A stretch of 64,000 bases of DNA from Heterohyrax brucei (taxonomy: Eukaryota > Chordata > Mammalia > Hyracoidea > Procaviidae): positions 135,938,829-136,002,828 of the forward strand of contig CM053143.1 in the NCBI GenBank assembly GCA_028571685.1, given 5' to 3'. The position numbers and the translations under genes were made by a program. Positions 1,036 to 58,683 of this stretch are shown here, piece after piece. The first letter of the stretch is position 1; each line of letters starts with the position of its first letter. The notes beneath the pieces are model-generated. The model had not been told where the DNA came from and made no database searches. It saw nothing but the letters and a program-made list of their open reading frames with translations.

Positions 1036-2125
1036 GTGTTGTAGTTGTTATTAGGTGCCATCACGTCACTTACGACTCATAGCAAAGCTACACACAACAG
1101 AATAGAACACTGCTTGGTCCTAAGCCATCCTCACAATCGTTGTTACACATAAACCCACTGTTGCATCTGGTGTGGTCACTTCTTCTCATTGAAGGTCTTC
1201 TTCTTTCTCACTGACCATCTACTTTACCAAACATGATGTCCTCCTCCAGAGACTCTTGATAACATGTCCAAAGTATATGAGACAAAGCCTCACCATTCTT
1301 GCTTCTCAGGAGCATTCTGGTCATACTTTTTCAAAGACAAATTTTTTTATTCTTTTAGCAATCCACAGTATATGGAATATTATTCTCCAGTGCCACAATT
1401 CAAAGGGGTCAGTTCTTCTGCAGTCTTGATTCTTCATTGTCTAGTTTTCACATGCATACAAGGCAATGAAAAACACCAAGGCTTGGGTGCAATGCACCTG
1501 ATTCCTGAAAGTGGCGTCTTTGCTTTCTATCACTATAAAAAGAGGTGTTTTGTAGCAGATTTGCTCAGTGCAATTTATCTTTTGATTTCTTGACTGGTGT
1601 TTCCATGGGTGTTGATTGTGGATTTGAGTACAATGAAATCCTTGACAACTTCAGCCTTTTTTCCATTCATCATGATGTTGTTCATTGGTCTAGTTGTGAA
1701 GACTTTTGTTTTCTTTATGTTGAGGCGTAATCTGTGATAATGGCTGTGGCCTTTGATCTTCATCAGTAAGTGAAATCAAGGACTCTGCTTTCAGCAAGCT
1801 AGGTTGTATCATCTACATAACACAGGTTGTTAATGAGTCTGCCTCCAATTCTCACGCTGCATTCTTCTTCATATGATCCATTGTGAATAAGTCTGGCAGA
1901 AGAATACAACTCTGACCCACAACTTTCCTGACTTTAAACCACATAGTATCCTCTTGTACTATTCAAACAACTGCTTCTTAGTCTGTGTATAAGTTCCTCA
2001 TAAGTACAATTAAGTATTCTGGTATTCCCATTCTTCCCAACACTATCCATAATTTGTTATGACCTACACAATCAAATGCTTTCCATAGTCAATAAAACAC
2101 AAATCAACATCTTTTCATATTCTTC
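1036..2125 (-). mobile_element. RTE LINE 3' half (Afrotherian RTE), decayed
   Basis: It starts with the reverse complement of the shared tail ('ttgttattaggtgccatcacgt') and runs through the antisense of the reverse transcriptase C-terminal coding region. Coding frames are broken by stops. The tail is the same as the AfroSINE tail. Antisense short frames here are not host genes. Confidence 0.85.
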
Positions 2126-16740: not shown

Positions 16741-17339
16741 AAGTGTTGTTGTTGTTGTTGTTGGGTGCCACTGAGTTGGTTCCAACTCACAGCAACCCTG
16801 TGCACAACAGAATGAAACGCTGTCCAGTCTTCTGCCGTGTCCACAACATTTTTATGGTTAAGCTCATTGTCATGGCCACTGTGTCAATCCATTCGGTTCA
16901 GGGTCTTCCTCTTTTTCACTGACCCTCCACTGTACCAAGCATGATGTCCTTCTCCAGGCACTGATCCTTCCTGACAATGTGTCCAAAGTATATAAGATGT
17001 AGTCTGTCCATCTTTGGTTCCAAGGAACACTCTGGTTGTACTTTTCCAGGACAGAGCTGTTTGTTCTTTTGGCAGTCCATGGTACATTAAGTATTCTTCT
17101 CCAACACCACAATTCAAAGGTGTCAATTTTTTTGGCTTCCTTGTTCATTGTTCAACTTTCACACGCATATGATGCAATTGAAAATACCATGGCTTGGGTC
17201 AGGCAAACCTTGGTCTTCAAGGTGACATCTTTACTCGTCAATACTTTAAAGAGGTCCTTTGCAGCATATTTTCCCAACACTGTGTATCTTGATTTCTTGG
17301 CTGCTGCTTCCATAGGTGTTGATCATGGACCCAAGTAAA
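16741..17339 (-). mobile_element. RTE LINE 3' fragment
   Basis: Starts with (GTT)n and 'ggtgccactgagttggttcc'. Antisense reads recognisable RTE C-terminal coding (for example 'NCGVGEEYLMYHGLPKEQT') broken by stops. Confidence 0.88.
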
Positions 17340-17520
17340 GTAAGTCATTATAAAAGTCTTGCCTGTTCCTTAAGTAGGGTTACCTAGAGCTGAGAAATGG
17401 CCTGGAATTACAAGATCAGCAGCTGGCTGTTACTCCCTCACTACCTGACTGTCTGTATGTTACTCACATACTTATACAATCACAAAATCATTCAGCTTTT
17501 CGAGACCACCATAAACCTTA

Positions 17521-20068: not shown

Positions 20069-20074
20069 GATAAT
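20069..20074. repeat. Target-site duplication, left (GATAAT)
   Basis: The six bases immediately before the 5' LTR TG are repeated exactly after the 3' LTR CA. A 6-bp duplication is typical of betaretroviruses; most class I (gamma-like) elements give 4 bp. Confidence 0.93.
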
Positions 20075-20105
20075 TGTTGGGGACCATGGGGAAGCCCCCC
20101 AGGTC

Positions 20106-20280
20106 CAGCATACAGGAAGCTTGGAAAAGCCCGTGCGTCACTGCTTACCAGCATACAGGAAACTTGGAAAGTCCTGTGTGCCATTGTTTAGCATACAGGC
20201 AATTTGGAAAGTCCTGTGTGCCATTGTTTAGCATACAGGAAGCTTGGAAGTTTGGAAAGTCCCACGCGTCACTGCCCAGC
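20106..20280 (+). repeat. Four tandem 40-43 bp units in U3 (probable enhancer)
   Basis: GCATACAGG recurs at 20108, 20151, 20191 and 20231, each followed by a variant of 'aacttggaaagtcctgtgtg' and a short T- or C-rich stretch. Units 2 and 3 are nearly identical; units 1 and 4 share a CGTCACTGC ending. The same array is in the 3' LTR from 28475. Repeated U3 units are usually the retroviral enhancer; which factors bind is not known from this sequence. Confidence 0.85.
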
Positions 20281-20304
20281 ACCACCACCCACGCTTGCCC
20301 CTAA

Positions 20305-20379
20305 CCAATCACTGAATGCCAAGCACTTCTTACTAGACCTCACCTAACTGCAAGACCCTCCCCTCCTCAAAGTATATAT
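20305..20379 (+). promoter_or_regulatory. LTR core promoter: CCAAT box and TATA box
   Basis: CCAAT is at 20305-20309 and TATATAT at 20373-20379. Transcription is expected to start about 25-30 bases after the TATA box, near 20400-20405. The same elements in the 3' LTR are at 28672-28746. Confidence 0.75.
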
Positions 20380-20394
20380 TCCGCTGTTGCATTC

Positions 20395-20400
20395 AATAAA
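20395..20400 (+). promoter_or_regulatory. AATAAA signal in the 5' LTR, upstream of the predicted cap site
   Basis: AATAAA lies only 15 bases after the TATA box. If the cap site is near 20400, the signal falls at the end of U3 and is left out of the 5' end of the transcript. It would then work only in the 3' LTR. Confidence 0.65.
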
Positions 20401-20521
20401 GTTTGAGGCTTGATCAGAATTTTGTCTTGCCTCCATTTCTCCGTGTCTCTTGCCCCACCTTCATTTTCTCAGGCTCCCCCCTCGTCTCTCCGTTGATTTG
20501 TCCCGCGGGTCGGGGCAAAAC

Positions 20522-20539
20522 TGGCGCCCAACGTGGGGC
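20522..20539 (+). promoter_or_regulatory. Primer-binding site, lysine tRNA type
   Basis: TGGCGCCCAACGTGGGGC lies four bases after the end of the 5' LTR. Eighteen bases complementary to the 3' end of tRNA-Lys1,2 serve as primer site in type-D and several other betaretroviruses. It appears intact. Confidence 0.93.
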
Positions 20540-20740
20540 CCGAGGGTACGAGACTGCTGAAAGACACCCACTACGGAGAAGAAAGTCCTGGCCAGGCATC
20601 CTGAGCTGCCACACCGGGTGTGAGCCAGCTTGACCGGGGTCTCCACGAGAAAAGTCGCTCGTGAGTCAGACCCGTCCTGATCACCGCGGGAGTAGCCGCC
20701 CTGCGAGTTTTGATCTGCAAAAGGTGAGTGGGTTAAAGTT
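20540..20740 (+). promoter_or_regulatory. Leader: likely packaging region and major splice donor
   Basis: This untranslated leader lies between the primer site and the gag ATG. AAG|GTGAGT at 20721-20729 is a near-consensus 5' splice site, with the cut after 20723 and only 17 bases before gag. It would be the donor for spliced env RNA. The packaging signal should lie here, but no specific fold was worked out. Confidence 0.7.
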
Positions 20741-22762
20741 ATGGGGCAAGAATTAAGTTCACATGATTTGTTCCTCACGGGAATCAAAGAGTCTTTTAAG
20801 ATGCGGAGAATTAAGGCAAAAAAGAAAGACTTAGCTCAGTTTTTTATGTTTCTGTCGGATGTGTGCCCATGGTTTCCTCAGGAGGGCACCATTAGCCCGC
20901 AAATTTGGAAACGGGTTGGAGATTGTTTGAATGACTATTATAAAACTTTCGGACCTGAGAAGGTCCCAGTCACTTGCTTTTCTTATTGGAATTTGATAAA
21001 TGATGTCCTCCAGAGTTCCCATAATGCTCCTGATGTTCAACATCTCGCCCAGATGGGTGAAAGGGTTATGAAGGAACAGTCCCGTCCCCCTTCCGCCTGC
21101 CCCTCAGTTTCTGAGGAGCCTCAGGCCCTCGGAACACACACATCCCCGCAAAAGAGTCATACTGATCCCTCCAAGGGTCTTTACCCGTCCTTAAAAGCCA
21201 GCACCGATAAACCTGATTCTGACCCACTGTCCCCTGAAGATCAGACCACGCTTGAGGAACACGCCGCTCATTACCGTGAGGATGCCTATCCCTATACCTT
21301 TACAGCCCCGGCCTTCCAAAAGCCTCCTCCCTATCCCCCAGGCCCTCCTAACCCGGCCACCCCACCCCTTGGCCCCGGATCCAGCTGTCCTCCCAGTTCA
21401 ACGGAAAACTCCCTTGAGCAAGATATATCGACGCTAGAAAAACTTGTTGCTCGCAGGCAGAGACAGTTAGAGCTCCAAAAAGAGCTCCAAGCCCTTGAGC
21501 AAGAGCTTAACTCACTCAGCCTGGCCCAGAACCCTAAAACGCGATCCCGGGGCGGTGTGTCACAAGGTACCCCTGGCCGTCCTAAGACTCTCCTCACCTT
21601 CCCGGTAACCCGTAGTCAGCGCGAGCAGGCGGAAATCGAAATAGAAAGTGAAGAAGAGCAAGAAAGCCCCAGAATAGAAGAGGAAGAAGAGGTCGAGAAT
21701 CCTGATGCAGATGATGTCCAACCTGACAGCCTTAGCCCCCAGAAATATCGCCGCCTAAACGTAAAACATGTTAAAGACCTAAAAGCGGCTGTTAATAACT
21801 ACGGCCCAACAGCCCCTTACAGTATAGCATTACTTGAAAGCCTTAGTGACCGATGGCTTACACCTAATGATTGGCATTTTTTGGCCCGGGCCTGTTTATC
21901 AGGGGGAGATTTTGTTCTCTGGCGTACTGAGTTTGCTGAACAGTGCCGAGAGACGGCACAACGTAATGGAGAAAGCAAAACCTCCCGCACCTGGACAAGA
22001 GATAAACTCTTGGGGCGGGCTCCATATAACACCAATGAAAAACAGGCAAATTTTCCCCCTGGTTTGTTATCGCAAATACAAAACGCTGGCCTTCGAGCCT
22101 GGAGACGGCTCCCCCCCAAGGGCGCGGCCACTACCTCTTTGGCTAAAATTCGCCAGGGACCTGATGAGCCATATAGTGAATTCGTCAGCCGATTAACTGA
22201 CGCTGCCGAAAGGCTAGTAGGAGAAGGTGAGACCGGCAGTGCTTTTATCAAACACCTTGCCTTTGAAAATGCTAACCCCTCTTGTCAAGAAGCCTTACGG
22301 CCTCATCGCAGGGGAGATCTCTCCGATTACGTCCGACTTTGCTCGGGTATCGGAGCCTCCCACACCATTGGCATTGCCATAGGCGCGGCGCTTAAGGGTT
22401 TGGACCTCAGCTCATCACAAAAAACTTGTTTTAATTGCAAACAGCCTGGCCATTTTGTACGCGAATGTCCCCTGGGAAAACAACATCGAGGGCCTCCCAC
22501 CTCAGTGTGCCCCCGGTGCAAAAGGGGCAAGCATTGGGCTGTAGATTGTTATTCCAAAACTGACATTAACGGTCAGCCTCTCCCCCCGAAACAGGGAAAC
22601 TCCCAGCGGGGCCAGCCCCTGGCCCCACCCTCGGAACAGAACCTAGGGGCAGTCAGGTTTGTTCCCCCCAAACAGACACAGAGACAGGTTTCAGCTCCCT
22701 CTGCCGCGCCACCCCTGGAAGTGCAGGCCTGGACCTCCGTTCCGCCACCAGTACAATACTGA
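20741..22762 (+). CDS. gag: Retroviral Gag polyprotein (complete, 673 aa)
   Basis: Gag is the structural polyprotein that assembles the virion core at the membrane. The ATG begins MGQ, giving a Gly2 myristoylation context. The N-terminal ~100 residues form a betaretrovirus-type matrix. A PPPY late-domain motif lies at 195-198 in a proline-rich stretch. Residues 221-262 form a charged coiled coil, followed by an acidic run at 300-320. The capsid spans about 325-545, with a major homology region near 470-494. Nucleocapsid has two CCHC knuckles (563-576 and 590-603) with all zinc ligands present. The frame is open throughout, and the stop lies 162 bases beyond the gag-pro frameshift site. There is no visible break, so the protein could be made if the LTR is active. 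Confidence in identity is very high; expression is unknown. Confidence 0.96.
   Translation: MGQELSSHDLFLTGIKESFKMRRIKAKKKDLAQFFMFLSDVCPWFPQEGTISPQIWKRVGDCLNDYYKTFGPEKVPVTCFSYWNLINDVLQSSHNAPDVQHLAQMGERVMKEQSRPPSACPSVSEEPQALGTHTSPQKSHTDPSKGLYPSLKASTDKPDSDPLSPEDQTTLEEHAAHYREDAYPYTFTAPAFQKPPPYPPGPPNPATPPLGPGSSCPPSSTENSLEQDISTLEKLVARRQRQLELQKELQALEQELNSLSLAQNPKTRSRGGVSQGTPGRPKTLLTFPVTRSQREQAEIEIESEEEQESPRIEEEEEVENPDADDVQPDSLSPQKYRRLNVKHVKDLKAAVNNYGPTAPYSIALLESLSDRWLTPNDWHFLARACLSGGDFVLWRTEFAEQCRETAQRNGESKTSRTWTRDKLLGRAPYNTNEKQANFPPGLLSQIQNAGLRAWRRLPPKGAATTSLAKIRQGPDEPYSEFVSRLTDAAERLVGEGETGSAFIKHLAFENANPSCQEALRPHRRGDLSDYVRLCSGIGASHTIGIAIGAALKGLDLSSSQKTCFNCKQPGHFVRECPLGKQHRGPPTSVCPRCKRGKHWAVDCYSKTDINGQPLPPKQGNSQRGQPLAPPSEQNLGAVRFVPPKQTQRQVSAPSAAPPLEVQAWTSVPPPVQY
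22594..22650 (+). promoter_or_regulatory. Gag-pro -1 frameshift site with H-type pseudoknot
   Basis: The heptamer G GGA AAC (22594-22600) sits in the gag frame exactly as needed for simultaneous -1 slippage. After a 7-base spacer, GGGGCC (22608-22613) pairs with GGCCCC (22621-22626). The loop GCCCC (22615-22619) pairs with GGGGC (22646-22650). This leaves a 1-base first loop (A22614), an unpaired T22620 between the stems and a 19-base second loop. The layout is that of known betaretroviral gag-pro pseudoknots. Confidence 0.88.
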
Positions 22763-23532
22763 CCCCTGAACAGGGCATTCGGGTCATTCCCACTGAGGTC
22801 CGAGGACCATTGCCCCCGGAAACGTTTGGGCTGATAATAGGGCGAGGCAGCTCCTCCTTGGCCGGTCTTCAAATTCTCCCGGGAGTTATTGATAATGATT
22901 ATACAGGACAGATTTCTCTTTTGGCTTCTGCCCCCTCGGGGCCGGTATCCATACATGCAGGTTAAAGAATAGCTCAGATCTTATTGCTCCCTTTATTACC
23001 TACACCCCATAGGCATTTAGTTCCCCGGCGGCCTGATGTCGCCTTCGGGTCCTCAGATGCATATTGGCTACAACCAGTCACCCCTGATAGGCCAAGGCTT
23101 ACTCTCCAGTTGGATGGCAAAACCTTCGAAGGAATAATGGATACGGGGGCTGATACCACAGTAATTTCCACTAAATATTGGCCTTCCAACTTGCCCTGTG
23201 AAACCGCCATAACCCATCTGGAGGGCATTGGCCAGTCAGTCAACTCAAAACAAAGCTCAAAAATTCTTACTTGGAAAGACTCTGAAGGTAACGCAGGACA
23301 AATTCAGCCTTACATTGTTCCAGGTTTACCTGTTAATCTATGGGGCCGTGATGTTTTATCCCAATTGGGAATCATCATGTGTAGCCCAAATGAGATAATT
23401 ACCCAGCAGATGCTTAACCTGGGTTTCCTACCGGGACAAGGACTGGGGAAGAATAATCAAGGTATAAAACAGCCTCTTCCCTTAGCGCCTAAAACCAATC
23501 GTGCAGGCTTGGGAAGTAAAAATTTTCCGTAG
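22600..23532 (+). pseudogene. pro: Pro frame: dUTPase, aspartic protease, G-patch; one in-frame stop
   Basis: This frame is -1 relative to gag and is entered at the GGGAAAC site. The first part is a trimeric dUTPase: motif 1 (GSAGLDL), motif 2 (GRGSSSLAG), motif 3 (GVIDNDYTG), motif 4 (RIAQ) and motif 5 (FGSSD) are all recognisable. The retroviral aspartic protease follows, with its DTGAD active site at about 23140 and the downstream GRD helix. A glycine-rich G-patch (LGFLPGQGLGKNNQG) closes the frame, as in betaretroviruses. A TAA at 22963-22965 interrupts the dUTPase between motifs 3 and 4. It would end the Gag-Pro product before the protease and prevent Pol synthesis. The frame is otherwise open up to the TAG at 23530. 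Family dUTPase lowers dUTP; protease matures Gag and Pol. Confidence 0.92.
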
Positions 23533-23598
23533 CGGTCATTGACTCGCCTGCACCCCACGCTGATAAGATTAAGTGGAAATCTGAGTCTCCAGTGTGGG
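23520..23598 (+). promoter_or_regulatory. Pro-pol -1 frameshift site and candidate stem
   Basis: The heptamer A AAT TTT (23520-23526) lies in the pro frame just before the pro stop (23530-23532), the canonical type-D pro-pol slip sequence. A 9-bp stem can form between 23554-23562 (CCCACGCTG) and 23590-23598 (CAGTGTGGG), with one G-T pair. GACTC (23541-23545) can also pair with GAGTC (23583-23587) in pseudoknot order. The slip site is sure; the structure is less so, because its stems start 14-27 bases downstream. Confidence 0.75.
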
Positions 23599-26132
23599 TA
23601 GATCAATGGCCCTTGACTGAACAAAAACTCGCAGCTGCCACAAAGTTAGTGCAGGAACAGCTGGCTGCTGGACATTTAGAACCAACCACCTCCCCTTGGA
23701 ATACTCCTATATTTGTGATCAAAAAGAAAAACGGGTCCTGGCGACTCCTCCAGGACCTCAGAGAAATTAATAAAACTATGTTTACAATGGGGGCCCTTCA
23801 ACCTGGACTCCCCTCCCCCGTTGCCATTCCAGCTAACTATTTTAAAATCATTATTGATCTTAAAGATTGCTTCTTTACCATCCCTCTTCACCCACTCGAT
23901 AGGGAACGCTTTGCGTTTAGCCTCCCTGTTATCAATTTTAAAGGGCCGATGCAACGCTATCAGTGGAAGGTTCTCCCTCAAGGCATGGCCAATAGCCCTA
24001 CGCTATGTCAAAAATTTGTTGCCCAAGCAGTGGACCCTCTCCGCCGCCGATGGCCTTCTATGTACATCATTCATTATATGGATGATATCCTGCTGGCTGG
24101 TGCCACCCGTCTTGAAGTGCTTAATTGCAGCCAAGATTTAACCCATAGCCTGGCTCTTTTGGGGCTTCAAATTGCCCCTCACAAGGTTCAACTTACAGAT
24201 CCCTATTACTACCTGGGCTTTGAATTAAACGGTAACCAAATTCGCACACAAAAGCTTAGCTTTCAAACCTCTCAATTACAAACCCTAAATGACTTCCAAA
24301 GGTTCCTGGGAGATATAAACTGGCTCAGACCATATCTCCGACTCACAACAGGAGAATTAAAACCATTATTTGATGTTCTTCGAGGGGACCCCGACCCTCT
24401 CTCCCCCCGGCAACTCACCCCAGAGGCGTCAAAAGCCCTTCGTACTGTCGAACTGGCGGTGCAAAAACAACAAGTCACTTTTCTTGCTTATGACAAACCC
24501 TTTGCTCTGATAGTTTGCCAGACACCCCATATGCCCACAGGAGTGTTGTGGCAAGAGGGACCCCTCCTATGGATACACCTGTCGACCAATCCATCCAAGG
24601 TCCTTGTCACATACCCTGCGCTGGTAGCAAAGATTATAAAGACAGGCAGAGAAAAGGGGCGCCTACATTTTGGACGGGATCCTAATCACCTTATAGTCCC
24701 ATATACCAAGGAACAAGTAGACTGGCTCTCTCAAAATGATGATGACTGGGCAATTACCCTCATTACATTCCAGGGCTCTATAGATAATCATTACCCTTCA
24801 CACAAACTCCTCCAGTTTGCCCAAAGGCACTCCTTCATCTTCCCCAAAATTACATCTGCTCAGCCCTTGAAAGGGGCCTCCCTGGTTTTTTCAGACGGGT
24901 CATCCTCTGGTGTTGCGGCATGGGTCATAAACTCACAGGAATATAGTGTCCAGTCTCCTTACAAGTCAGCCCAGCTTGTGGAGCTTTTCGCTATCATACA
25001 AGTCTTCACCATACTACATGATATCCCCTTTAATCTCTATACCGACAGTGCTTACATAGCCCTCTCGGTCCCTGTGTTGGAAACTGTTCTGTATATCAAA
25101 CCATCTTCCAACGCTGTGCCTCTCTTCCAGCGACTCCAGACACTCATCCTAGAAAGAAAAGACCCCTTTTTTATTGGGCACTTGCGAGCCCATACCGACC
25201 TCCCAGGACCCCTCTCCGAAGGCAATAGCCTTGCAGACAAACAAACACACTTGGTCCTCTCAGCTACCCTAGAGCCCACTGCCAAGGCCCAACAGGCTCA
25301 CGCTCTTCACCACCTCAATGCCCGTACACTTCGTCTTATGTTTAAGATCTCTAGAGAACAAGCGAGGCAAATCGTTAAAGACTGTCCCGCATGCGTAACT
25401 CTTCTGCCTCTTCCCCACCTGGGAGTTAACCCAAGGGGCCTACTTCCCAATGAAATCTGGCAGATGGATGTTACCCATATTCCTGAATTTGGCAACCTCA
25501 AGTATACCCATGTAACTATTGACACCTTTAGTGGGTTCCTCCATGCCACCCTCCATAGTGGTGAGGCCTCTAAAAATGTTATAGCACATGTCCTTCAATG
25601 CATTGCTGTCATGGGACGGCCCCAACAAATCAAAACAGATAATGGACCAGGCTACACATCTCAAACCTTCAAAAACTTCTGTAGTCAATTCCAAATCAAA
25701 CATGTGACTGGTATTCCCTATAATCCTCAGGGACAAGGCATAATAGAACGAGCTCACCAAACCCTTAAATACACCGTATCCAAGCTTAAAGCAAACACTG
25801 TTTATCCCACTAAAGGCTCTCCTCGTAATCTTCTACATCATGCATTGTTCATCCTTAATTTCCTGCAATTGGATCTGAACGGAAATTCTGCAGCCGATCG
25901 CCTTTGGCATCAAGAGACTAAAAATCAATATGCCAAGGTTATGTGGAAAGATCCCATAACCCACAAATGGCACGGTCCTGACCCGGTTCTTATCTGGGGC
26001 AGAGGTCATGCATGTGTGTATGATACTGCAGAAGGAGCCCCTCGGTGGCTACCCGAATGTCTTGTTAAGCCTATCAATGATAATTCCCATTCCAGGGACA
26101 ATACCCCTGAGAAACTTTCTCCTCTTTCGTAG
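23526..26132 (+). CDS. pol: Retroviral Pol: reverse transcriptase, RNase H, integrase (open reading frame complete)
   Basis: Pol is the replication enzyme, translated only through two -1 frameshifts, so the start is the slip site and not an ATG. The frame is open for about 868 codons. The reverse transcriptase has LPQGM and the YMDD active site (24075-24086). RNase H keeps all four acidic residues (codons at 24894, 24981, 25044 and 25236). Integrase has the HHCC zinc domain ending in CPAC, then the catalytic triad D (25467), D (25638), E (25746) with 35 residues between the last two, and a basic C-terminal domain rich in Trp. No stop or frameshift is visible inside. The upstream stop in pro should abolish its synthesis from this copy. 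The TAG stop at 26130 overlaps a probable env splice acceptor. Confidence 0.95.
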   Translation, partial: SVAVIDSPAPHADKIKWKSESPVWVDQWPLTEQKLAAATKLVQEQLAAGHLEPTTSPWNTPIFVIKKKNGSWRLLQDLREINKTMFTMGALQPGLPSPVAIPANYFKIIIDLKDCFFTIPLHPLDRERFAFSLPVINFKGPMQRYQWKVLPQGMANSPTLCQKFVAQAVDPLRRRWPSMYIIHYMDDILLAGATRLEVLNCSQDLTHSLALLGLQIAPHKVQLTDPYYYLGFELNGNQIRTQKLSFQTSQLQTLNDFQRFLGDINWLRPYLRLTTGELKPLFDVLRGDPDPLSPRQLTPEASKALRTVELAVQKQQVTFLAYDKPFALIVCQTPHMPTGVLWQEGPLLWIHLSTNPSKVLVTYPALVAKIIKTGREKGRLHFGRDPNHLIVPYTKEQVDWLSQNDDDWAITLITFQGSIDNHYPSHKLLQFAQRHSFIFPKITSAQPLKGASLVFSDGSSSGVAAWVINSQEYSVQSPYKSAQLVELFAIIQVFTILHDIPFNLYTDSAYIALSVPVLETVLYIKPSSNAVPLFQRLQTLILERKDPFFIGHLRAHTDLPGPLSEGNSLADKQTHLVLSATLEPTAKAQQAHALHHLNARTLRLMFKISREQARQIVKDCPACVTLLPLPHLGVNPRGLLPNEIWQMDVTHIPEFGNLKYTHVTIDTFSGFLHATLHSGEASKNVIAHVLQCIAVMGRPQQIKTDNGPGYTSQTFKNFCSQFQIKHVTGIPYNPQGQGIIERAHQTLKYTVSKLKANTVYPTKGSPRNLLHHALFILNFLQLDLNGNSAADRLWHQETKNQYAKVMWKDPITHKWHGPDPVLIWGRGHACVYDTAEGAPRWLPECLVKPINDNSHSRDNTPEKLSPLS
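26115..26132 (+). promoter_or_regulatory. Candidate env splice acceptor
   Basis: A pyrimidine run (TTTCTCCTCTTTCG) ends in TAG followed by G, a strong 3' splice site shape. The AG is the last two bases of the pol stop codon. Joining 20723 to 26133 would place the env ATG (26193) 60 bases into the second exon. Inferred from sequence shape only. Confidence 0.55.
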
Positions 26133-26192
26133 GCTGTGAAAACCACCTGTGTCCGGCATCGCTGAAGTGAGACGCTGAGAAAACCGTACAGG

Positions 26193-28127
26193 ATGAAAAG
26201 CAACAATTCACCACAGATAAGCCTTTCAGCCATCTTGCTAATACTTGTTTCTACATATATCAAATCCGGCCTTGCCATCTCCCGCAACTCTAACCCCCAT
26301 GCTCCCCGACTACTTAATTGGACAATCATAGATCTAAGCGAAGGCACTGTTCTTAACAGTACCTCACATCAGGCTCCGCCATATACCTGGTGGCCTGATC
26401 TATACTTTTGTTTGCACCAATCCATTCGCTCTGCAAGAAGCACCCCTCCTAATCTAGTACGTAGTTATGGATTTTACAGCTGCCCCGGGAATAACAAAGG
26501 TAGACACTGCGGGGGGACAGCAAATTATTTCTGTAAAAGTTGGAGTTGTGTCACCTCGAATGATGGAGATTGGAAGTGGAATGTGGGCAACCGGGACCTT
26601 TTAACATTCTCCTTTGCCAACGTAGGACCCGGCAAGTATACAACCATGGAATTATATAAACGCCGTGAATGTAAAACCACTGACTTAGATTTCATAAGGG
26701 TCCATTTTAATGAAGCAGCAAAAGGGGAAGCCATAAAAACACAATGGATTACAGGTCTAAATTGGGGTGTGGTGTTCTGGAACTATGGGGAAAGCGAGGG
26801 AGCCCTTATCCAAATTCGCCTCGTAATAAGTAACCCCACATTTCAGTCCATAGGACCAAATACAGTTTTGTCTGAACAACAAAAACCCATAGAGTCTGAA
26901 CAACAAAAGCCCGTAAAGCCAAAACCACAAGGCTCAACTCCCCTAGTCACAGTTACTCCATCACCTCTAGTCACAACTACTCCATCACTTCCATCCTTAG
27001 ATTTATCTAAGGCACACCCATCTTCAAACTTCTCTAGTAGTCAAAGATTATTAAACCTGGTACAAGGTGCTTTTCAAGTCCTCAACGACACTAATTCCAA
27101 CTTGACCAAATCCTGCTGGCTGTGTTTAGCAACTACCCCCCCTTATTATGAAGGACTTACCTTAATGGGAAATTATTCCAACCTAACTGATCACACTAAT
27201 TGCAGCTGGATATCTGAAAAAAGACTCACCCTTACTGCAGTTTCTGGATCGACAGGAACCTGTATTGGTACCCCACCCACCTCCCAACTAGCAAGGCTCT
27301 GTAATCGAACCTTAAAGAGTCCTCACACTTCTGATACATATTATCTTATCCCCCCGATAGGGGGCTGGTGGGCTTGTAACACCGGACTCACACCTTGTGT
27401 ATCCACCAGTGTGTTTAATCAGTCACGTGACTTTTGTGTCATGGTCCGAATCTTCCCCAGAATCATTTATCACACTGGAGATAACTTCCTAACCCAATAC
27501 CAATTGCAAACCGCCAGGTTTAAAAGAGAACCCATCTCTTTAACCTTAGCAGTGCTTCTAGGCCTAGGCGTGGCGGCAGGAGTTAGTACTGGTACTGCAG
27601 CCTTAATAGAGGGACCTAAGCAACTCCACAGCTTAAACCTTGCCATCACTGAAGATCCAAAAGCCATTGAGCAATCCATCTCTAAATTAAAGGACTCGCT
27701 AACCTCCTTATCGGAAGTAGTCCTCCAAAATCGAAGGGGGCTCGACCTAATTTTTCTCAAAGAAGGCGGTTTATGTGCAGCCTTGAAAGAACAATGTTGT
27801 TTTTATACAGATCATTCAGGAGTCATTAAAGACTCCATGGCTAAACTCAGAGAGCGCTTAAACCAAAGACAACGGGAATTGGGAACCGGGTCAGGACCAT
27901 GGGGTCTCAACCTACCCGGAACTTCGTGGCTCACTAATCTACTTCTCAGTTTTGCTGGCCCTGTTCTAGGTATATTGCTGTTCCTGGCCTTCGGCCCCTG
28001 GGCTTTTAGAAGAATAACAAACCTCATCAAGCAACAAATAGATGCTGCACAGGCTAGACCTATTCAAGTTCACTATCATCGCATGGCAGTTGACGAAGCT
28101 TACGCTGCCAGCAATGGGGTGCCCTAG
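26193..28127 (+). CDS. env: Retroviral envelope glycoprotein, gammaretrovirus class (complete, 644 aa)
   Basis: Env is the surface and transmembrane glycoprotein. A signal peptide occupies about residues 1-28. The surface subunit runs to the RFKR furin site at 442-445. It has a cysteine-rich N-terminal domain, then a proline-rich hinge (about 227-280) with internal repeats, then the CWLC isomerase motif at 308-311. The transmembrane subunit starts with a hydrophobic fusion-peptide-like stretch (446-470). Next come a heptad region, an immunosuppressive-like helix (511-527), CX6CC at 528-536 and a membrane span near 578-602. The cytoplasmic tail is about 40 residues. About ten N-glycosylation sites are present. 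CX6CC plus CWLC define the gamma class, unlike a classical betaretroviral Env. The length and hinge resemble murine-leukaemia-type rather than the shorter type-D envelopes. No break is visible. Receptor and any host use are unknown. Confidence 0.95.
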   Translation: MKSNNSPQISLSAILLILVSTYIKSGLAISRNSNPHAPRLLNWTIIDLSEGTVLNSTSHQAPPYTWWPDLYFCLHQSIRSARSTPPNLVRSYGFYSCPGNNKGRHCGGTANYFCKSWSCVTSNDGDWKWNVGNRDLLTFSFANVGPGKYTTMELYKRRECKTTDLDFIRVHFNEAAKGEAIKTQWITGLNWGVVFWNYGESEGALIQIRLVISNPTFQSIGPNTVLSEQQKPIESEQQKPVKPKPQGSTPLVTVTPSPLVTTTPSLPSLDLSKAHPSSNFSSSQRLLNLVQGAFQVLNDTNSNLTKSCWLCLATTPPYYEGLTLMGNYSNLTDHTNCSWISEKRLTLTAVSGSTGTCIGTPPTSQLARLCNRTLKSPHTSDTYYLIPPIGGWWACNTGLTPCVSTSVFNQSRDFCVMVRIFPRIIYHTGDNFLTQYQLQTARFKREPISLTLAVLLGLGVAAGVSTGTAALIEGPKQLHSLNLAITEDPKAIEQSISKLKDSLTSLSEVVLQNRRGLDLIFLKEGGLCAALKEQCCFYTDHSGVIKDSMAKLRERLNQRQRELGTGSGPWGLNLPGTSWLTNLLLSFAGPVLGILLFLAFGPWAFRRITNLIKQQIDAAQARPIQVHYHRMAVDEAYAASNGVP

Positions 28128-28427
28128 CTTCCTCCCCAAGGAGACAGCATGATAAGTAGAGGCATGCTTACCTCCTTACCAGCCTGGGAAGAGAGGTATG
28201 GACATCGGGTTGAGTGCGAAGCAAAGCATTGCAAGGGAAAGTTATTATTAACTCCTCTACGTTTCCCTGGAGCATACCTGGCTTGCATAGAGGTTGGTAT
28301 CTATCACATGACAACACTATCGCTCTGCCTCTCCTCCACAAAAAATACCAAGAGCGAAAGAACAACAGGAGGAGCCATGGTCACTACTCCCTCTCCCGAT
28401 TAAAGCCCACCTCCCAATAAATAAAAC
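28128..28427 (+). other. Env-to-polypurine-tract region, function unknown
   Basis: This 300-base segment lies between the env stop and the polypurine tract, where simple type-D viruses carry an RNA export element. It has short complementary pieces such as AGGTATG (28194-28200) and CATACCT (28273-28279), but I could not draw a convincing constitutive-transport-element fold. An 84-codon open frame (28149-28403) has no recognisable domain and is probably chance. Confidence 0.4.
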
Positions 28428-28441
28428 AAAAAGGGAGGAGA
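28428..28441 (+). promoter_or_regulatory. Polypurine tract
   Basis: AAAAAGGGAGGAGA directly abuts the TG of the 3' LTR. It is the expected primer for plus-strand DNA synthesis. Confidence 0.92.
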
Positions 28442-28884
28442 TGTTGGGGACCATGGGGAAGCCCCCCAGGCCCAGCATACAGGAAGCTTGGAAAAGCCCG
28501 TGCGTCACTGCTTACCAGCATACAGGAAACTTGGAAAGTCCTGTGTGCCATTGTTTAGCATACAGGCAATTTGGAAAGTCCTGTGTGCCATTGTTTAGCA
28601 TACAGGAAGCTTGGAAGTTTGGAAAGTCCCACGCGTCACTGCCCAGCACCACCACCCACGCTTGCCCCTAACCAATCACTGAATGCCAAGCACTTCTTAC
28701 TAGACCTCACCTAACTGCAAGACCCTCCCCTCCTCAAAGTATATATTCCGCTGTTGCATTCAATAAAGTTTGAGGCTTGATCAGAATTTTGTCTTGCCTC
28801 CATTTCTCCGCGTCTCTTGCCCCACCTTCATTTTCTCAGGCTCCCCCCTCGTCTCTCCGTTGATTTGTCCCGCGGGTCGGGGCA
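28442..28884 (+). repeat. 3' LTR of the provirus
   Basis: This is a 443-bp copy of the 5' LTR with two substitutions. It begins directly after the polypurine tract and ends at CA before the GATAAT duplication. It would supply the poly(A) signal for proviral transcripts. As a promoter it could also drive transcription into the downstream AfroSINE region. Confidence 0.97.
28762..28767 (+). terminator. Proviral poly(A) signal AATAAA in the 3' LTR
   Basis: AATAAA is followed by a T-rich segment (around 28782-28800) suitable as a downstream element. Cleavage would occur roughly 15-20 bases after it, setting a short R region. Confidence 0.8.
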
Positions 28885-28890
28885 GATAAT
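28885..28890. repeat. Target-site duplication, right (GATAAT)
   Basis: Exact copy of the six bases before the 5' LTR. An intact duplication shows that both LTRs belong to one integration and have not been shuffled by recombination with another copy. Confidence 0.93.
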
Positions 28891-28901: not shown

Positions 28902-29130
28902 AGACATGGTGGCATAGTAGCTAAGTGCTACATCTGCTAACCAAAAGATCAATAGTTCAAATCTGGCCTACTGCTCCTTGGAAACTCTACGAAGCAGTTC
29001 TACTCTGTCCCATGGGGTTATTGTGAGTCAGAATCAACTCGACAGCACAGCTTGTGTTGGGTTGGGTTGGGTGGCGTGGCGTGGGGTTGGGTGGGGTTGG
29101 GTGGGGTTGGGTTGGGTGAGGTCGGGTGGT
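28902..29130 (+). mobile_element. AfroSINE with G-rich pentamer tail
   Basis: SINE head and body to about 29050. A tail of GGGTT/GGGTG/GGCGT units follows (29056-29130), expanded from the usual GGGTTTGG tail. Confidence 0.88.
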
Positions 29131-32093: not shown

Positions 32094-32662
32094 TGAGGTC
32101 TGTCTGAAAATTAAGTCCGTGAACTTAATTGTTCTAAGTGCTGCATACCTCATTGCTGAGTATGGCTATGGTCACTTTCAAAGCATTCCCCTTGGGAAGC
32201 TATGCACCAACCCCAACACCTAGTCCACCCTTCAAAGCAATTTTGGGACTCTTTCTGGAATGGCCATAGCACATGGTGGCATGGTTTATGAACTTAATTG
32301 TATAGCTGCCTGTGAGGGAGTTTTGAGCCAGTAAACAAATAACTGTTTTGCATTCCCCTCCCCACTCACCTGACCTGGCCCACAGTGACTTTTTTCTTTA
32401 TCCCAAAATAAAGGAAGAATTGAAAGGAAGATATTTGGATGACATTCAGGACATCAAGCATAACATGACAATAGCTCTGGTGGCCATTCCAGAAAAAGAG
32501 TTCCAAGATTGCTTTGAACGGTGGCCTAGGCACTGGCATCAGTGCATAGCTTGCCAAGGAGATTACTTTGAAGGTGACCATAGTGACATTCAGCAATGAG
32601 GTATGCAGCATGCTTTCTAGGATGATCTAGGATGAGTTCACTAACTTAACTGTCAGATCTTG
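32094..32662 (+). mobile_element. Foldback mariner element, copy 1
   Basis: Both ends carry a TGAGGTCTG-type inverted terminus next to TA (or mutated TA) target bases. The left arm (32094-32267) is an inverted copy of the right arm (32480-32662). The centre encodes the C-terminal part of a mariner transposase (PHSPDLAHSDFFLYPKIKE). It cannot make transposase. Confidence 0.85.
32310..32602 (+). pseudogene. Mariner transposase C-terminal remnant
   Basis: The reading includes SPDLAHSDFFLYP, the block holding the last catalytic Asp of mariner transposases, then an EEL-KGR-type helix and the C-terminal CIACQGDYFEGD. The N-terminal DNA-binding domain and the first two catalytic Asp residues are absent. 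A dead fragment inside the foldback element; the same remnant is in copy 2. Confidence 0.85.
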
Positions 32663-36872: not shown

Positions 36873-37605
36873 TGTTGTTAGGTGCCGTTGAGTCCATTCT
36901 GACTCACAGTGATCCTGTGCACAACAGAATGAAACTCTTCCCAGTGTTGCACCATGTCTGTAATTGCCTTCATGCTTAAGCCTATTGTTGCAGCCACTGT
37001 ATTGACCCATCTTATTGAGTGTCTTCCTCTTTTTCACTGACCCTTTACTCCACAAAGCATGCTGTCCTTCTCCAGGACCGATCCTTCCTGACAACATGTC
37101 ATGTAAGACACATTCTTGCCATCTTTGTTTCCAAGGAGCACTCTAGTTGTACTTCTTCCAGAACAGATCTGTTTGTTCTTTTGGTGGTCCACGGTACATT
37201 AACAATCTTCTCCAACACCACAACTTAAAAGCATCAATTCTTCTTCTGTCTTCTGTGTTCATGTCCAGTTTTCTCATGCATATTATGCAACTGAAAATAC
37301 CATGGCTTGGGTCAGGCACATCTTGGTCTTCAAAGTGACATCTTTACTTTTCAATATTTTAAAGAGGTCCTTTGCAGCAGATTTTCCCAATGCAATGCGT
37401 CTTTTAGTTCTTGACTGCTGCTTCCATGGGTATTGGCTGTGGGCCCAGGTAAAGTGAAATCCTTGACAAGCTCAATTCTTTCCCCATTTATTATGATGTT
37501 TCTTATTGGTCCAGTTGTGAAGATTTTTGTTTTCTTGATGTTAAGGTGCAATCCATACCGAAGGCTGTGGTCCTTGAACTTCATCAGCAAGTATTTCAAA
37601 ACTTA
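36873..37605 (-). mobile_element. RTE LINE 3' fragment
   Basis: Starts 'gttgttaggtgccgttgagt'. Antisense coding is recognisable ('KFKDHSLRYGLHLNIKKTKI') but interrupted. Confidence 0.9.
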
Positions 37606-38849: not shown

Positions 38850-40096
38850 TGACAATATCATTAATACCATACGCAACTAAAACTATGCTGAAGATAATTT
38901 GAAAACGGTTACAACAGTACATAGACAAGAAACTTCCAGAAATTTACGCTGGATTCAATAGAGGAGATGAAATCACAGGTATCATTGCTGATGTCACATA
39001 GATTCTGGCTGAAAGCAGAGAATATCAGAAAGACGCTTACCTATGTTTTATTAAACTGTGCATATGCATTTGACTGTGTGAGACATATCAAATTACAGAT
39101 AGCTCTTCAAAGAATAAGGATTTCAGAACACTTAACTGTGCTCTTAAGGAATCTGTACTTAGACCACGACGCAGTCACTCCACCAGAACAAAGGGACACT
39201 CTGTGGTTTAAAATCAGGAAAGGTGTGCATTTGGACTGTATGCTTTCACCATGCTTATTCAGTCTGTATGCTGAATAAATAATCTCAGAGGCTAGACTAT
39301 CTGAAGAAGAACAAGGCATCGAGACTCACTGACAACCTGTGATATGTAGATGGCACCACCTTGCTTGTTGAAAGTGAAGAGGACGTGAAGCAGTCAGTGG
39401 AGAAGAACAAAGACTATACCTTTCAGTGTGGATTACGTCCCAACGTAAAGAAAACAATATTCTTCATAAATGGGCCAAAAAGCAACATCATGATAAGTGA
39501 AGAAAATACTGATGCTGTCAACAATTTCTTTTACTTGGATCCGCAACCAGTACCCATGAAAGCAGTAGTCAAGGAATCAAACAACACATTGCACTGGACA
39601 AGTCTGCTGTAAAAGTTTTCTTTAAAGTGTTGAAAAAGCAAAAGTGCCACTTCGAAGACTAAGAGGGGCCTGATCAAAGCCATAGTATTTTCAGTCGCTT
39701 CATATGCATGTGAAAGCTGGACAACGAATAAGGAAGACCTAAGAAGAATTGATGCTTTTGATTTATGATGTTGCTGAAGAAGACTGAATATGCCATGGAC
39801 CACCAAGAAAATGAACAAATCTGTCTTGGAAGAAACACTGCCAGAATGCTTCTTGGAAGTGAGGATGGCCAGACTTACTTCACATAATTTGGACATGTTA
39901 TCAGGAGAGACCAGTTCCTGGAGAAGGATGTCATACTTAGTAGAATAGGGCAGAGAAAAAGGAGAGTCTCAAAGAGATGCATGGACACAGTGGCTGCAAC
40001 AATGGGTTCAAACATATCAACTATTGTGGAGATAGTGCAGTGTTTTGTTCTGTTGCATATAGGGCCACTGAGTTGGAACCAAATCAACTTCTCCTA
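38850..40096 (+). mobile_element. RTE LINE ORF2 3' half with tail, decayed
   Basis: The plus-strand copy spans RT motifs: 'AFDCVRHIKLQIALQRI', then a V-LDCMLSPCLFSLYAE block. The catalytic YADD box is altered. The C-terminal 'LRPNVKKTIFFINGPKSNIM' follows, and the tail ends 'gccactgagttggaacc'. Multiple stops and frameshifts; a pseudogene copy. Confidence 0.88.
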
Positions 40097-40987: not shown

Positions 40988-41850
40988 ATGGGGCTGTGGT
41001 GCTATAGTGGTTAAGAGTTGAGCTGTTAATCAAAAGCTCAGCAGTTCAAATCCACCAGCTACTCCTGGGAAATGCTGTGTTGTTGTTAGGTGACTGGGTA
41101 CACAACAGAACCAAACACTGCCTGATCCTGCACCACACCCACAATTCTTTTTGTGCTTAAACCCGTTGTTGCAGCCACTGTAGCACTGCACCTTGTTGAG
41201 GGTTTTCCTCTTTCTTCTTGACCTTCTACTTTACCAGACATGATGCTTTTCTCCAGGGACTAATCCCTCCTAACAATATGTCCAAAAAATGTAAGACACA
41301 GTCTTGCTGTCTTTGCTTCCAAGGAGCACTCTGGTTGTACCTCTTCCAGAACAGATCTGTCACTTCTTTTGGCAGTATATGGTATGCTCAGTAATCTTCT
41401 CCAACACCACAATTCAAAGGTATCAATTCTTCTCTGTCTTCCGTATTCATTGTCCAGCTTTCACATGCATATGACACAATTGAAAACACCATGGCTTGGG
41501 TCAGACACACCTTAGTCTTCAAGGTGACATCTTTACTTTTCAGCACTTTAAAGAGGTCCTCCAAAGCAGATTTTTCCCAGTGTAATGCATCTTTTGATTT
41601 CTTGACTGCTGCTTCCATTGGTGTTGATTGTGGAACCAAGTAAAATGAAATCCTTGACCACCTCAATCCTTTTGTCACTTATCATGATACTGCTTACTGA
41701 TCCAGGTGTGAGAATTTTTTATTTCTTGATGTTAAGGTGCAATCCATACTGAAGGCTGTGGTGTGCCTATGGTACAGTTTTATTGTTTCCTAAAGGGTCA
41801 GTAAGCATCAACACTGACTCAGTGGTACCCAACAATAACAACAGTCTCTG
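40988..41850 (+). mobile_element. AfroSINE split by an RTE fragment
   Basis: The head (40988-41070) ends 'tactcctgggaaatgctgtg'. The tail resumes at about 41767 with 'cctatggtacagttttattg' and ends 'ggtacccaacaataacaaca'. Confidence 0.75.
41073..41763 (-). mobile_element. RTE LINE 3' fragment inserted in AfroSINE
   Basis: 'tgttgttaggtgactgggta' start. The antisense frame 41388-41678 is RTE coding. GCTGTG at both junctions may be a target duplication or chance. Confidence 0.87.
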
Positions 41851-58123: not shown

Positions 58124-58683
58124 TGAGGTCTGAAAATTGAGCCCATGAACTTAATTGTTCTAAGTGCTACATACCTCATTGCTGAATATCATTACAGTCT
58201 GCTTCAAAGTACTCCACTTGGGAAGCTATGCACCGATGCCAGCACCTAGTCCACCCTTCAAAGCCTTTCAACTCTTGTTGGAATGGTCACTGCACACAGT
58301 GGCATGGTGGCAAGTTCGCAAACTTAATTGATCCGTTGTCTGTGAGGGAGCTTTTAGTCAGTAAACAAATAACTGTATTGGAACAGCCTCCCTACTCACC
58401 TGATCTGGCCCCTAATGACTTTTGCCATTACCCAAAGATAAACAAAATACTGAAAGGAAGACATTTTGATGACATTCAAGACACTAAGGGTAATACAATG
58501 ACACCTCTGATGGCCATTCCAGAAAAAGAGTTCAAAACTGCTTTGAAGGGTGGACTAGGTGCTAGCGTTGGTGCATAGCTTCCCAGGGGGAGACTACTTC
58601 AAAGGCGACCATAGTGATGTTTGGCAATGAGGTATGTCACATTTTTTCTAGGATGCGTTTGTGAACTTAGTTGTCAGTCTTCA
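58124..58683 (+). mobile_element. Foldback mariner element, copy 2
   Basis: It starts TGAGGTCTG after a TA at 58122-58123 and ends in the matching inverted terminus, with TG (probably a mutated TA) after it. Left arm 58124-58290 is the inverted counterpart of right arm 58505-58683. Same internal junction as copy 1, same orientation, 26 kb away. Confidence 0.86.
58340..58578 (+). pseudogene. Mariner transposase C-terminal remnant, copy 2
   Basis: 'VRELLVSKQITVLEQPPYSP' then DLAPNDF keeps the last catalytic Asp block of mariner transposases. The N-terminal two-thirds are missing and the frame breaks before the end. The open frame beginning at 58228 includes translated left arm and is not a real start. 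Confidence 0.85.

What the first reader, a model, noticed from the sequence alone, without database searches (positions are those of the whole stretch)
20075..28884. Young, almost intact endogenous betaretrovirus-like provirus
Gag, pol and env are all fully open, the target duplication is perfect and the LTRs differ at 2 of 443 sites. For a mammalian genomic ERV this is unusually fresh. It may be lineage-specific or still polymorphic between individuals, and it may belong to a larger recent family.
Basis: partly seen in the sequence, partly recalled or inferred. Interest (0 to 1): 0.88.

Follow-up and report, generated by a model that had tools for sequence, protein, structure and literature searches.

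The report
Young chimeric provirus with hybrid envelope
A recently inserted retrovirus in a mammal's genome has a betaretrovirus core and an envelope whose outer part resembles pig-type gammaretroviruses while its inner tail matches betaretrovirus relatives in bats; its protease gene carries a stop codon, so this copy is not expected to replicate alone.

Summary
In detail: 443-nt LTRs differing at 2 sites, a perfect GATAAT duplication, and open gag, pol and env. Two things were missed. (1) The pro frame is broken: an in-frame TAA at 22963-22965 lies in the dUTPase, after the gag-pro slip sites and before protease, so as encoded this copy makes no protease, reverse transcriptase or integrase. 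(2) Env is not beta-type. Its receptor-binding part falls in a 14-row clade with porcine endogenous retroviruses (bootstrap 100, SH-aLRT 98). Its fusion ectodomain is 71% identical (median of 76 rows) to type-C Envs, 43% to a type-D-like bat relative. In the tail (residues 601-633) this reverses: 64-67% to two bat relatives, 21% median (74 rows) to type-C. The switch maps between residues 589 and 599 (0 of 20000 permutations). Best reading: a young betaretrovirus that took a PERV-like envelope head and kept its own tail. Beta/type-C recombinants are known (MEBrv 1, PyERV, pangolin ERV-Beta.a); I saw no described head-only swap, in keyword searches of an open-access library. Host, copy number, orthology and polymorphism could not be tested.

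The parts
20069..20074 (.). target-site duplication GATAAT, 5' copy
20075..20517 (+). 5' LTR, 443 nt; 3.5 copies of a 40-bp repeat at 20107-20249, TATA-like site 20373, AATAAA 20395
20522..20539 (+). primer-site-like stretch (I recall it as tRNA-Lys1,2 type)
   Evidence: label recalled
20741..22762 (+). gag, 673 aa, open: p10-type matrix, capsid, two zinc knuckles
22594..22600 (+). candidate gag-pro -1 slip site GGGAAAC (a second candidate lies at 22582)
22570..22962 (+). pro frame, first open piece (dUTPase, profile positions 5-93 of 129)
22963..22965 (+). in-frame TAA that interrupts pro
22966..23532 (+). pro frame, second open piece with stop (end of dUTPase, aspartyl protease, G-patch)
23520..26132 (+). 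pol, 870 aa, open: RT, thumb, RNase H, integrase; candidate pro-pol slip site AAATTTT at 23520
26193..28127 (+). env, 644 aa, open, gamma-type (CWLC, furin-like RFKR, ISD, CX6CC)
26292..26837 (+). receptor-binding part of Env (residues 34-215), PERV-like
27528..27887 (+). TM ectodomain (residues 446-565), type-C-like
27957..27989 (+). stretch in which Env switches from type-C-like to type-D-like (residues 589-599)
27993..28091 (+). Env tail (residues 601-633), closest to two bat gag+env proteins
28428..28441 (+). polypurine stretch
28442..28884 (+). 3' LTR, 443 nt
28885..28890 (.). target-site duplication GATAAT, 3' copy

Best explanation
A young provirus of a recombinant betaretrovirus. Gag, pro and pol belong to a betaretrovirus lineage with relatives in bats (shown by trees and identities). 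Env is a mosaic: PERV-like head and type-C-like fusion ectodomain, type-D-like tail (shown). Inferred: during co-packaging with a PERV-like gammaretrovirus, reverse transcription switched template between the end of pol and the receptor-binding part, and back within the membrane-anchor codons, so the virus gained a new head but kept the tail that meets its own matrix and protease. It then entered a germ line, by an LTR clock with a recalled rate about 1 My ago. Shown: this copy has a stop in pro. Inferred: it can still encode Gag and Env but would need a helper to move.
For: LTRs, duplication and frames. Betaretroviral domains: p10 matrix, dUTPase, G-patch. Pol 73-79% identical to nine unnamed proteins and 60-61% to SRV-1 and SRV-4; pol and gag trees. 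Env: best named hit PERV-B, 49% over 96%; full-length tree set of 10 with porcine Envs, SH-aLRT 100; RBD clade of 14, 100/98. TM against solved chains: 129.5 bits to 4jgs, 78.7 to 4jf3; the reverse in bat relative P0281 (82.3 and 161.6). Tail 64-67% to P0281 and P0233 against a 21% median to type-C; switch at residues 589-599, 0 of 20000 permutations with each of three references; tail tree 99/97.
Against: A tree of the whole TM set the window outside the other 32 type-C-like rows, next to the two bat rows, with weak support (87/46), on a long branch. Ectodomain AU tests were undecided, p 0.306 and 0.312, with one type-D-like row. Residues 566-600 favour neither side (type-C median 31%, bats 27% and 30%). 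The type-D-like references are two gene models from vespertilionid bats; no primate type-D Env was at hand. P0015 and P0064 combine type-C-like heads with related tails (2 of 76). The 5' crossover was not mapped.
Confidence: 0.65

Rival explanations
1. The whole env, head and tail, was captured in one piece from an unsampled gammaretrovirus that already had a type-D-like tail.
For: P0015 and P0064 have type-C-like ectodomains and FGPW/VHYH-like tails (2 of 76 rows).
Against: The window's tail is 64-67% identical to bat proteins that also carry its gag type, but at most 42% (P0015) to the type-C rows. In the RBD tree P0015 and P0064 lie outside the PERV clade.
Confidence: 0.2
2. An ordinary type-D betaretrovirus (group VIII of PMC3621094) whose env has merely diverged.
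For: The core is betaretroviral and the tail is type-D-like.
Against: RBD clade with porcine Envs, 100/98; TM ectodomain 71% (median) to type-C against 43% to P0281; [quoted passage not shown]
Confidence: 0.06
3. An old insertion whose LTRs were made alike by gene conversion.
For: LTR identity alone cannot exclude conversion, and orthology was not testable.
Against: One stop in 7491 coding nt with gag, pol and env open, a perfect duplication, and CpG observed/expected of 0.42-0.62 inside against 0.18-0.19 in the flanks.
Confidence: 0.04
4. The env is kept open because the host uses it (a syncytin-like or restriction gene).
For: Env is fully open while pro is broken.
Against: Gag and pol are open as well, and at 1.03 My the chance of no stop in all three is 0.56 without any selection.
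Confidence: 0.03

Closest known systems
MEBrv 1, marsupial endogenous betaretrovirus (PMC11334065; passages and section 7 read)
   Same: betaretroviral gag-pol with a type-C gamma env; LTR 453 nt; intact copies with identical LTRs reported
   Different: its env is reported to cluster with FeLV and GALV, the window's with porcine viruses; its tail was not compared; its sequence was not at hand
PyERV of pythons and ERV-Beta.a-Mpen of the Chinese pangolin (PMC3758190, PMC12584738; passages read)
   Same: betaretroviral gag-pol with a gamma-type env outside the RDR group
   Different: other hosts; described as whole-env swaps in the passages read; sequences not compared here
Type-D betaretroviruses such as MPMV and SRV, group VIII (PMC3621094; passages read)
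   Same: betaretroviral core with dUTPase; gamma-type Env; tail type-D-like by two bat references
   Different: head and TM ectodomain are type-C-like here; pol and gag lie outside the SRV sets
Porcine endogenous retrovirus B Env (P0003)
   Same: 49% over 96% of Env; RBD 52%, TM ectodomain 72%
   Different: 22% over residues 566-644; PERV is a gammaretrovirus in its core (recalled)
Bat proteins P0281 (Myotis daubentonii) and P0233 (Cnephaeus nilssonii)
   Same: gag 79% over 184 residues (P0281) and 50% over 632 (P0233); Env tail 64% and 67%
   Different: P0281's TM ectodomain is type-D-like, closest to 4jf3 and Syncytin-2 chains, and only 43% identical to the window's

Membership tests
Betaretrovirus-like (class II) core | betaretroviral Gag and Pol | tested here: met
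Betaretrovirus-like (class II) core | dUTPase encoded in pro | tested here: met
   domain present but interrupted by TAA
Betaretrovirus-like (class II) core | lysine-tRNA primer site | tested here: inconclusive
   stretch present at 20522-20539; the tRNA label is recalled, not aligned to a tRNA
Type-D (RDR) betaretrovirus | RDR motif SDGGGxxDxxR in SU | tested here: not met
   no match in the window's Env, nor in any of the 87 hits, so there was no positive control
Type-D (RDR) betaretrovirus | TM ectodomain closest to type-D | tested here: not met
   78.7 bits to 4jf3 against 129.5 to 4jgs; 43% to P0281 against a 71% type-C median
Type-D (RDR) betaretrovirus | tail of type-D kind | tested here: met
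   64-67% to two bat references; tail tree 99/97; no primate reference
Gamma-type Env | CXXC in SU, ISD and CX6CC in TM | tested here: met
PERV-type Env clade | receptor-binding part groups with porcine Envs | tested here: met
   14-row clade 100/98
PERV-type Env clade | TM anchor and tail of the PERV kind | tested here: not met
   22% to P0003 over residues 566-644; tail tree
Replication-competent provirus | gag, pro, pol and env all open | tested here: not met
   TAA in pro
Recent, possibly polymorphic insertion | empty site in other individuals or species | not testable with these tools
   no mammalian assemblies held; own-genome search unanswered

The most novel reading that the evidence does not exclude
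A natural head-only envelope swap between retrovirus genera: a betaretrovirus took a PERV-like head but kept its own tail, with the crossover in the membrane anchor. Keeping the tail that its own matrix and protease recognise would sidestep the protease/R-peptide incompatibility that PMC9967133 suggests, as speculation, may limit env capture. If general, crossovers in the anchor codons should recur among env-swapped retroviruses. The lineage may also have circulated recently in this host.
Probability: 0.5. Interest if true: 0.65.

Novelty: new variant of a known kind. Interest (0 to 1): 0.5.

Why it matters
Env swapping is thought to help retroviruses jump between species, and PMC9967133 (passages read) speculates that a mismatch between protease and Env tail may limit it. 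A young, legible example with its junction in the membrane anchor makes that idea testable by genome comparison alone: do other env-swapped betaretroviruses (MEBrv 1, PyERV, ERV-Beta.a-Mpen) keep their own tails? It also corrects the 'almost intact' label: as encoded, this copy lacks protease and all pol products.

Tried and rejected
Relatives in viral contigs: three scans (env, pol, P0281) gave no confirmed relative. Phage records: no match to pol. Rfam at gathering thresholds over the window: no match; beyond one fold without a shuffled control the stretch between env and the 3' LTR was not tested for an RNA transport element. Other copies in the window: LTR, leader, gag, pol, env and post-env pieces gave three matches of 15-28 nt, best E 0.089, in the flanks; pro was not searched there. 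Trees: full-length Env gave the porcine clade on a long branch; the whole TM set the window next to the type-D-like rows with weak support, which led to the segment analysis; ectodomain AU tests were undecided. The script stopped with an error while printing alignment rows, after its tables. In my scripts P0009 bears the label PERV_A; the source says only porcine, so the report calls it porcine. No structure was predicted.

Full report
Anatomy. The element runs from 20075 to 28884 with GATAAT on both sides. The two 443-nt LTRs differ at two sites, one of them at a CpG. The LTR holds 3.5 copies of a 40-bp repeat, a TATA-like site and a polyadenylation signal. A primer-site-like stretch follows, then gag (673 aa), the pro frame, pol (870 aa) and env (644 aa), with candidate -1 slip sites in the gag/pro and pro/pol overlaps. 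Pfam finds p10 matrix, capsid, zinc knuckles, dUTPase, aspartyl protease, G-patch, RT, thumb, RNase H, integrase and TLV_coat. The Env piece sent began one codon before the ATG.

What is broken. The pro frame has a TAA at 22963-22965, inside the dUTPase, downstream of both candidate gag-pro slip sites and upstream of protease. As encoded, this copy makes no protease, RT or integrase. Gag, pol and env are open.

Age. With 2 of 443 differences and a recalled rate of 2.2e-9 per site per year the estimate is 1.03 My (95% 0.12-3.71); recalled rates from 1.0e-9 to 4.5e-9 widen the range to 0.06-8.15 My. Under the 2.2e-9 rate and no selection, 0.66 stops are expected in 7491 coding nt at 1.03 My (one is seen), and the chance of none in gag, pol and env is 0.56. 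CpG observed/expected is 0.42-0.62 inside the element against 0.18-0.19 in the flanks. Whether the site is polymorphic cannot be told.

Core. Pol: 573 hits, 120 listed. The best nine are 73-79% identical and unnamed; SRV-4 and SRV-1 are at 61% and 60%. In a tree of 68 rows (the window and 67 of the 120 listed) the window groups with the unnamed close relatives (8 rows 98, 10 rows 100, SH-aLRT). A wider set of 33 rows (99) also holds the vampire-bat virus DrERV; the SRV rows lie in another set of 12 (99). Gag: 107 hits, best 57% (Ctenodactylus gundi and an unnamed protein). In a tree of 60 rows (the window and 59 of the 107) the window lies in a 17-row set (99) with bat, pangolin and gundi proteins, apart from the SRV and JSRV rows.

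Envelope head. Of 87 hits the best named is PERV-B, 49% over 96%. Against solved chains the TM region scores 129.5 bits with 4jgs (listed as MLV-related) and 78.7 with 4jf3 (listed only as envelope glycoprotein; I recall M-PMV). The RBD matches 1aol (GP70; I recall Friend MLV) and a FeLV RBD chain weakly, 33.1 and 25.8 bits. A tree of 72 full-length rows (the window and 71 of the 87, those over 520 aa) puts the window in a 10-row set with porcine Envs (SH-aLRT 100), on a long branch. An RBD tree of 70 rows (the window and 69 of the 87) gives a 14-row clade with porcine Envs, 100/98. RBD identity is 52% to PERV-B, 42% to another porcine Env, 32% to GALV and 26% to FeLV.

Envelope tail. Two predicted bat proteins join betaretroviral gag with env: P0281 (Myotis daubentonii) and P0233 (Cnephaeus nilssonii). 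P0281's TM scores 161.6 bits with 4jf3 and 82.3 with 4jgs, the reverse of the window; its best match is Syncytin-2, 192.1. P0233's short env piece matches Syncytin-2 (42.1) and 4jf3 (39.7); 4jgs is not among the 60 of 184 matches shown. P0281 shares 79% with the window over 184 gag residues and 92% over 26 integrase residues. In the window's TM, residues 446-565 are at 71% (median of 76 type-C rows) against 43% for P0281; residues 566-600 do not discriminate; residues 601-633 are at 21% (median of 74; best 42%) against 64% and 67% for P0281 and P0233. The best switch point lies between residues 589 and 599 with each of three type-C references, 0 of 20000 permutations each. With the type-C majority letter, P0281-like sites are 2 of 53 before it and 19 of 25 after. 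A tail tree of 27 rows groups the window with the two bat rows, 99/97.

Results against. A tree of the whole TM (35 rows) set the window outside the 32 other type-C-like rows with weak support, 87/46. The ectodomain AU tests are undecided. P0015 and P0064 carry related tails on type-C-like heads, 2 of 76. The type-D-like references are two gene models; the RDR motif search had no positive control.

Mechanism. Inferred: co-packaging with a PERV-like virus, one template switch between the end of pol and the RBD, a second in the anchor codons, then infection and germline insertion. [quoted passage not shown] Keeping the tail would avoid this. No function was tested.

Literature. Passages were read of PMC3621094, PMC3758190, PMC10536682, PMC12584738, PMC9967133 and PMC4333357 (it tabulates 42 NCBI ERV entries for African and 41 for Asian elephant, none compared here); of PMC11334065, passages and section 7. 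In the listings I saw no title or abstract start describing this element or a head-only swap. The library is open-access only, most listed papers were not opened, and long result lists were shown in part.

Noticed in passing
window 28907-29042 and further places: SINE-like copies (two motifs, 9 and 11 matches up to 3 mismatches; 0 and 0.02 expected by chance) that I recall as afrotherian; one starts 16 bp after the 3' duplication and ends in a G-rich tandem repeat at 29052-29129.
   Followed up: partly
window 1092-1771, 16755-17341, 36917-37582, 39402-40028, 41100-41762: A dispersed repeat family of about 600 bp, copies about 70-79% identical, in both orientations; not identified.
   Followed up: no
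window 32102-32624 and 58128-58655: Two copies of an unidentified 530-bp repeat, 78% identical.
   Followed up: no
P0281 (database protein, Myotis daubentonii): A gene model named syncytin-B-like is made of betaretroviral gag, an integrase piece and env, so it looks like a mis-annotated provirus.
   Followed up: partly
P0015 and P0064 (database proteins): Two of 76 type-C-like Envs end in a type-D-like FGPW/VHYH-like tail; perhaps further head/tail mosaics.
   Followed up: partly
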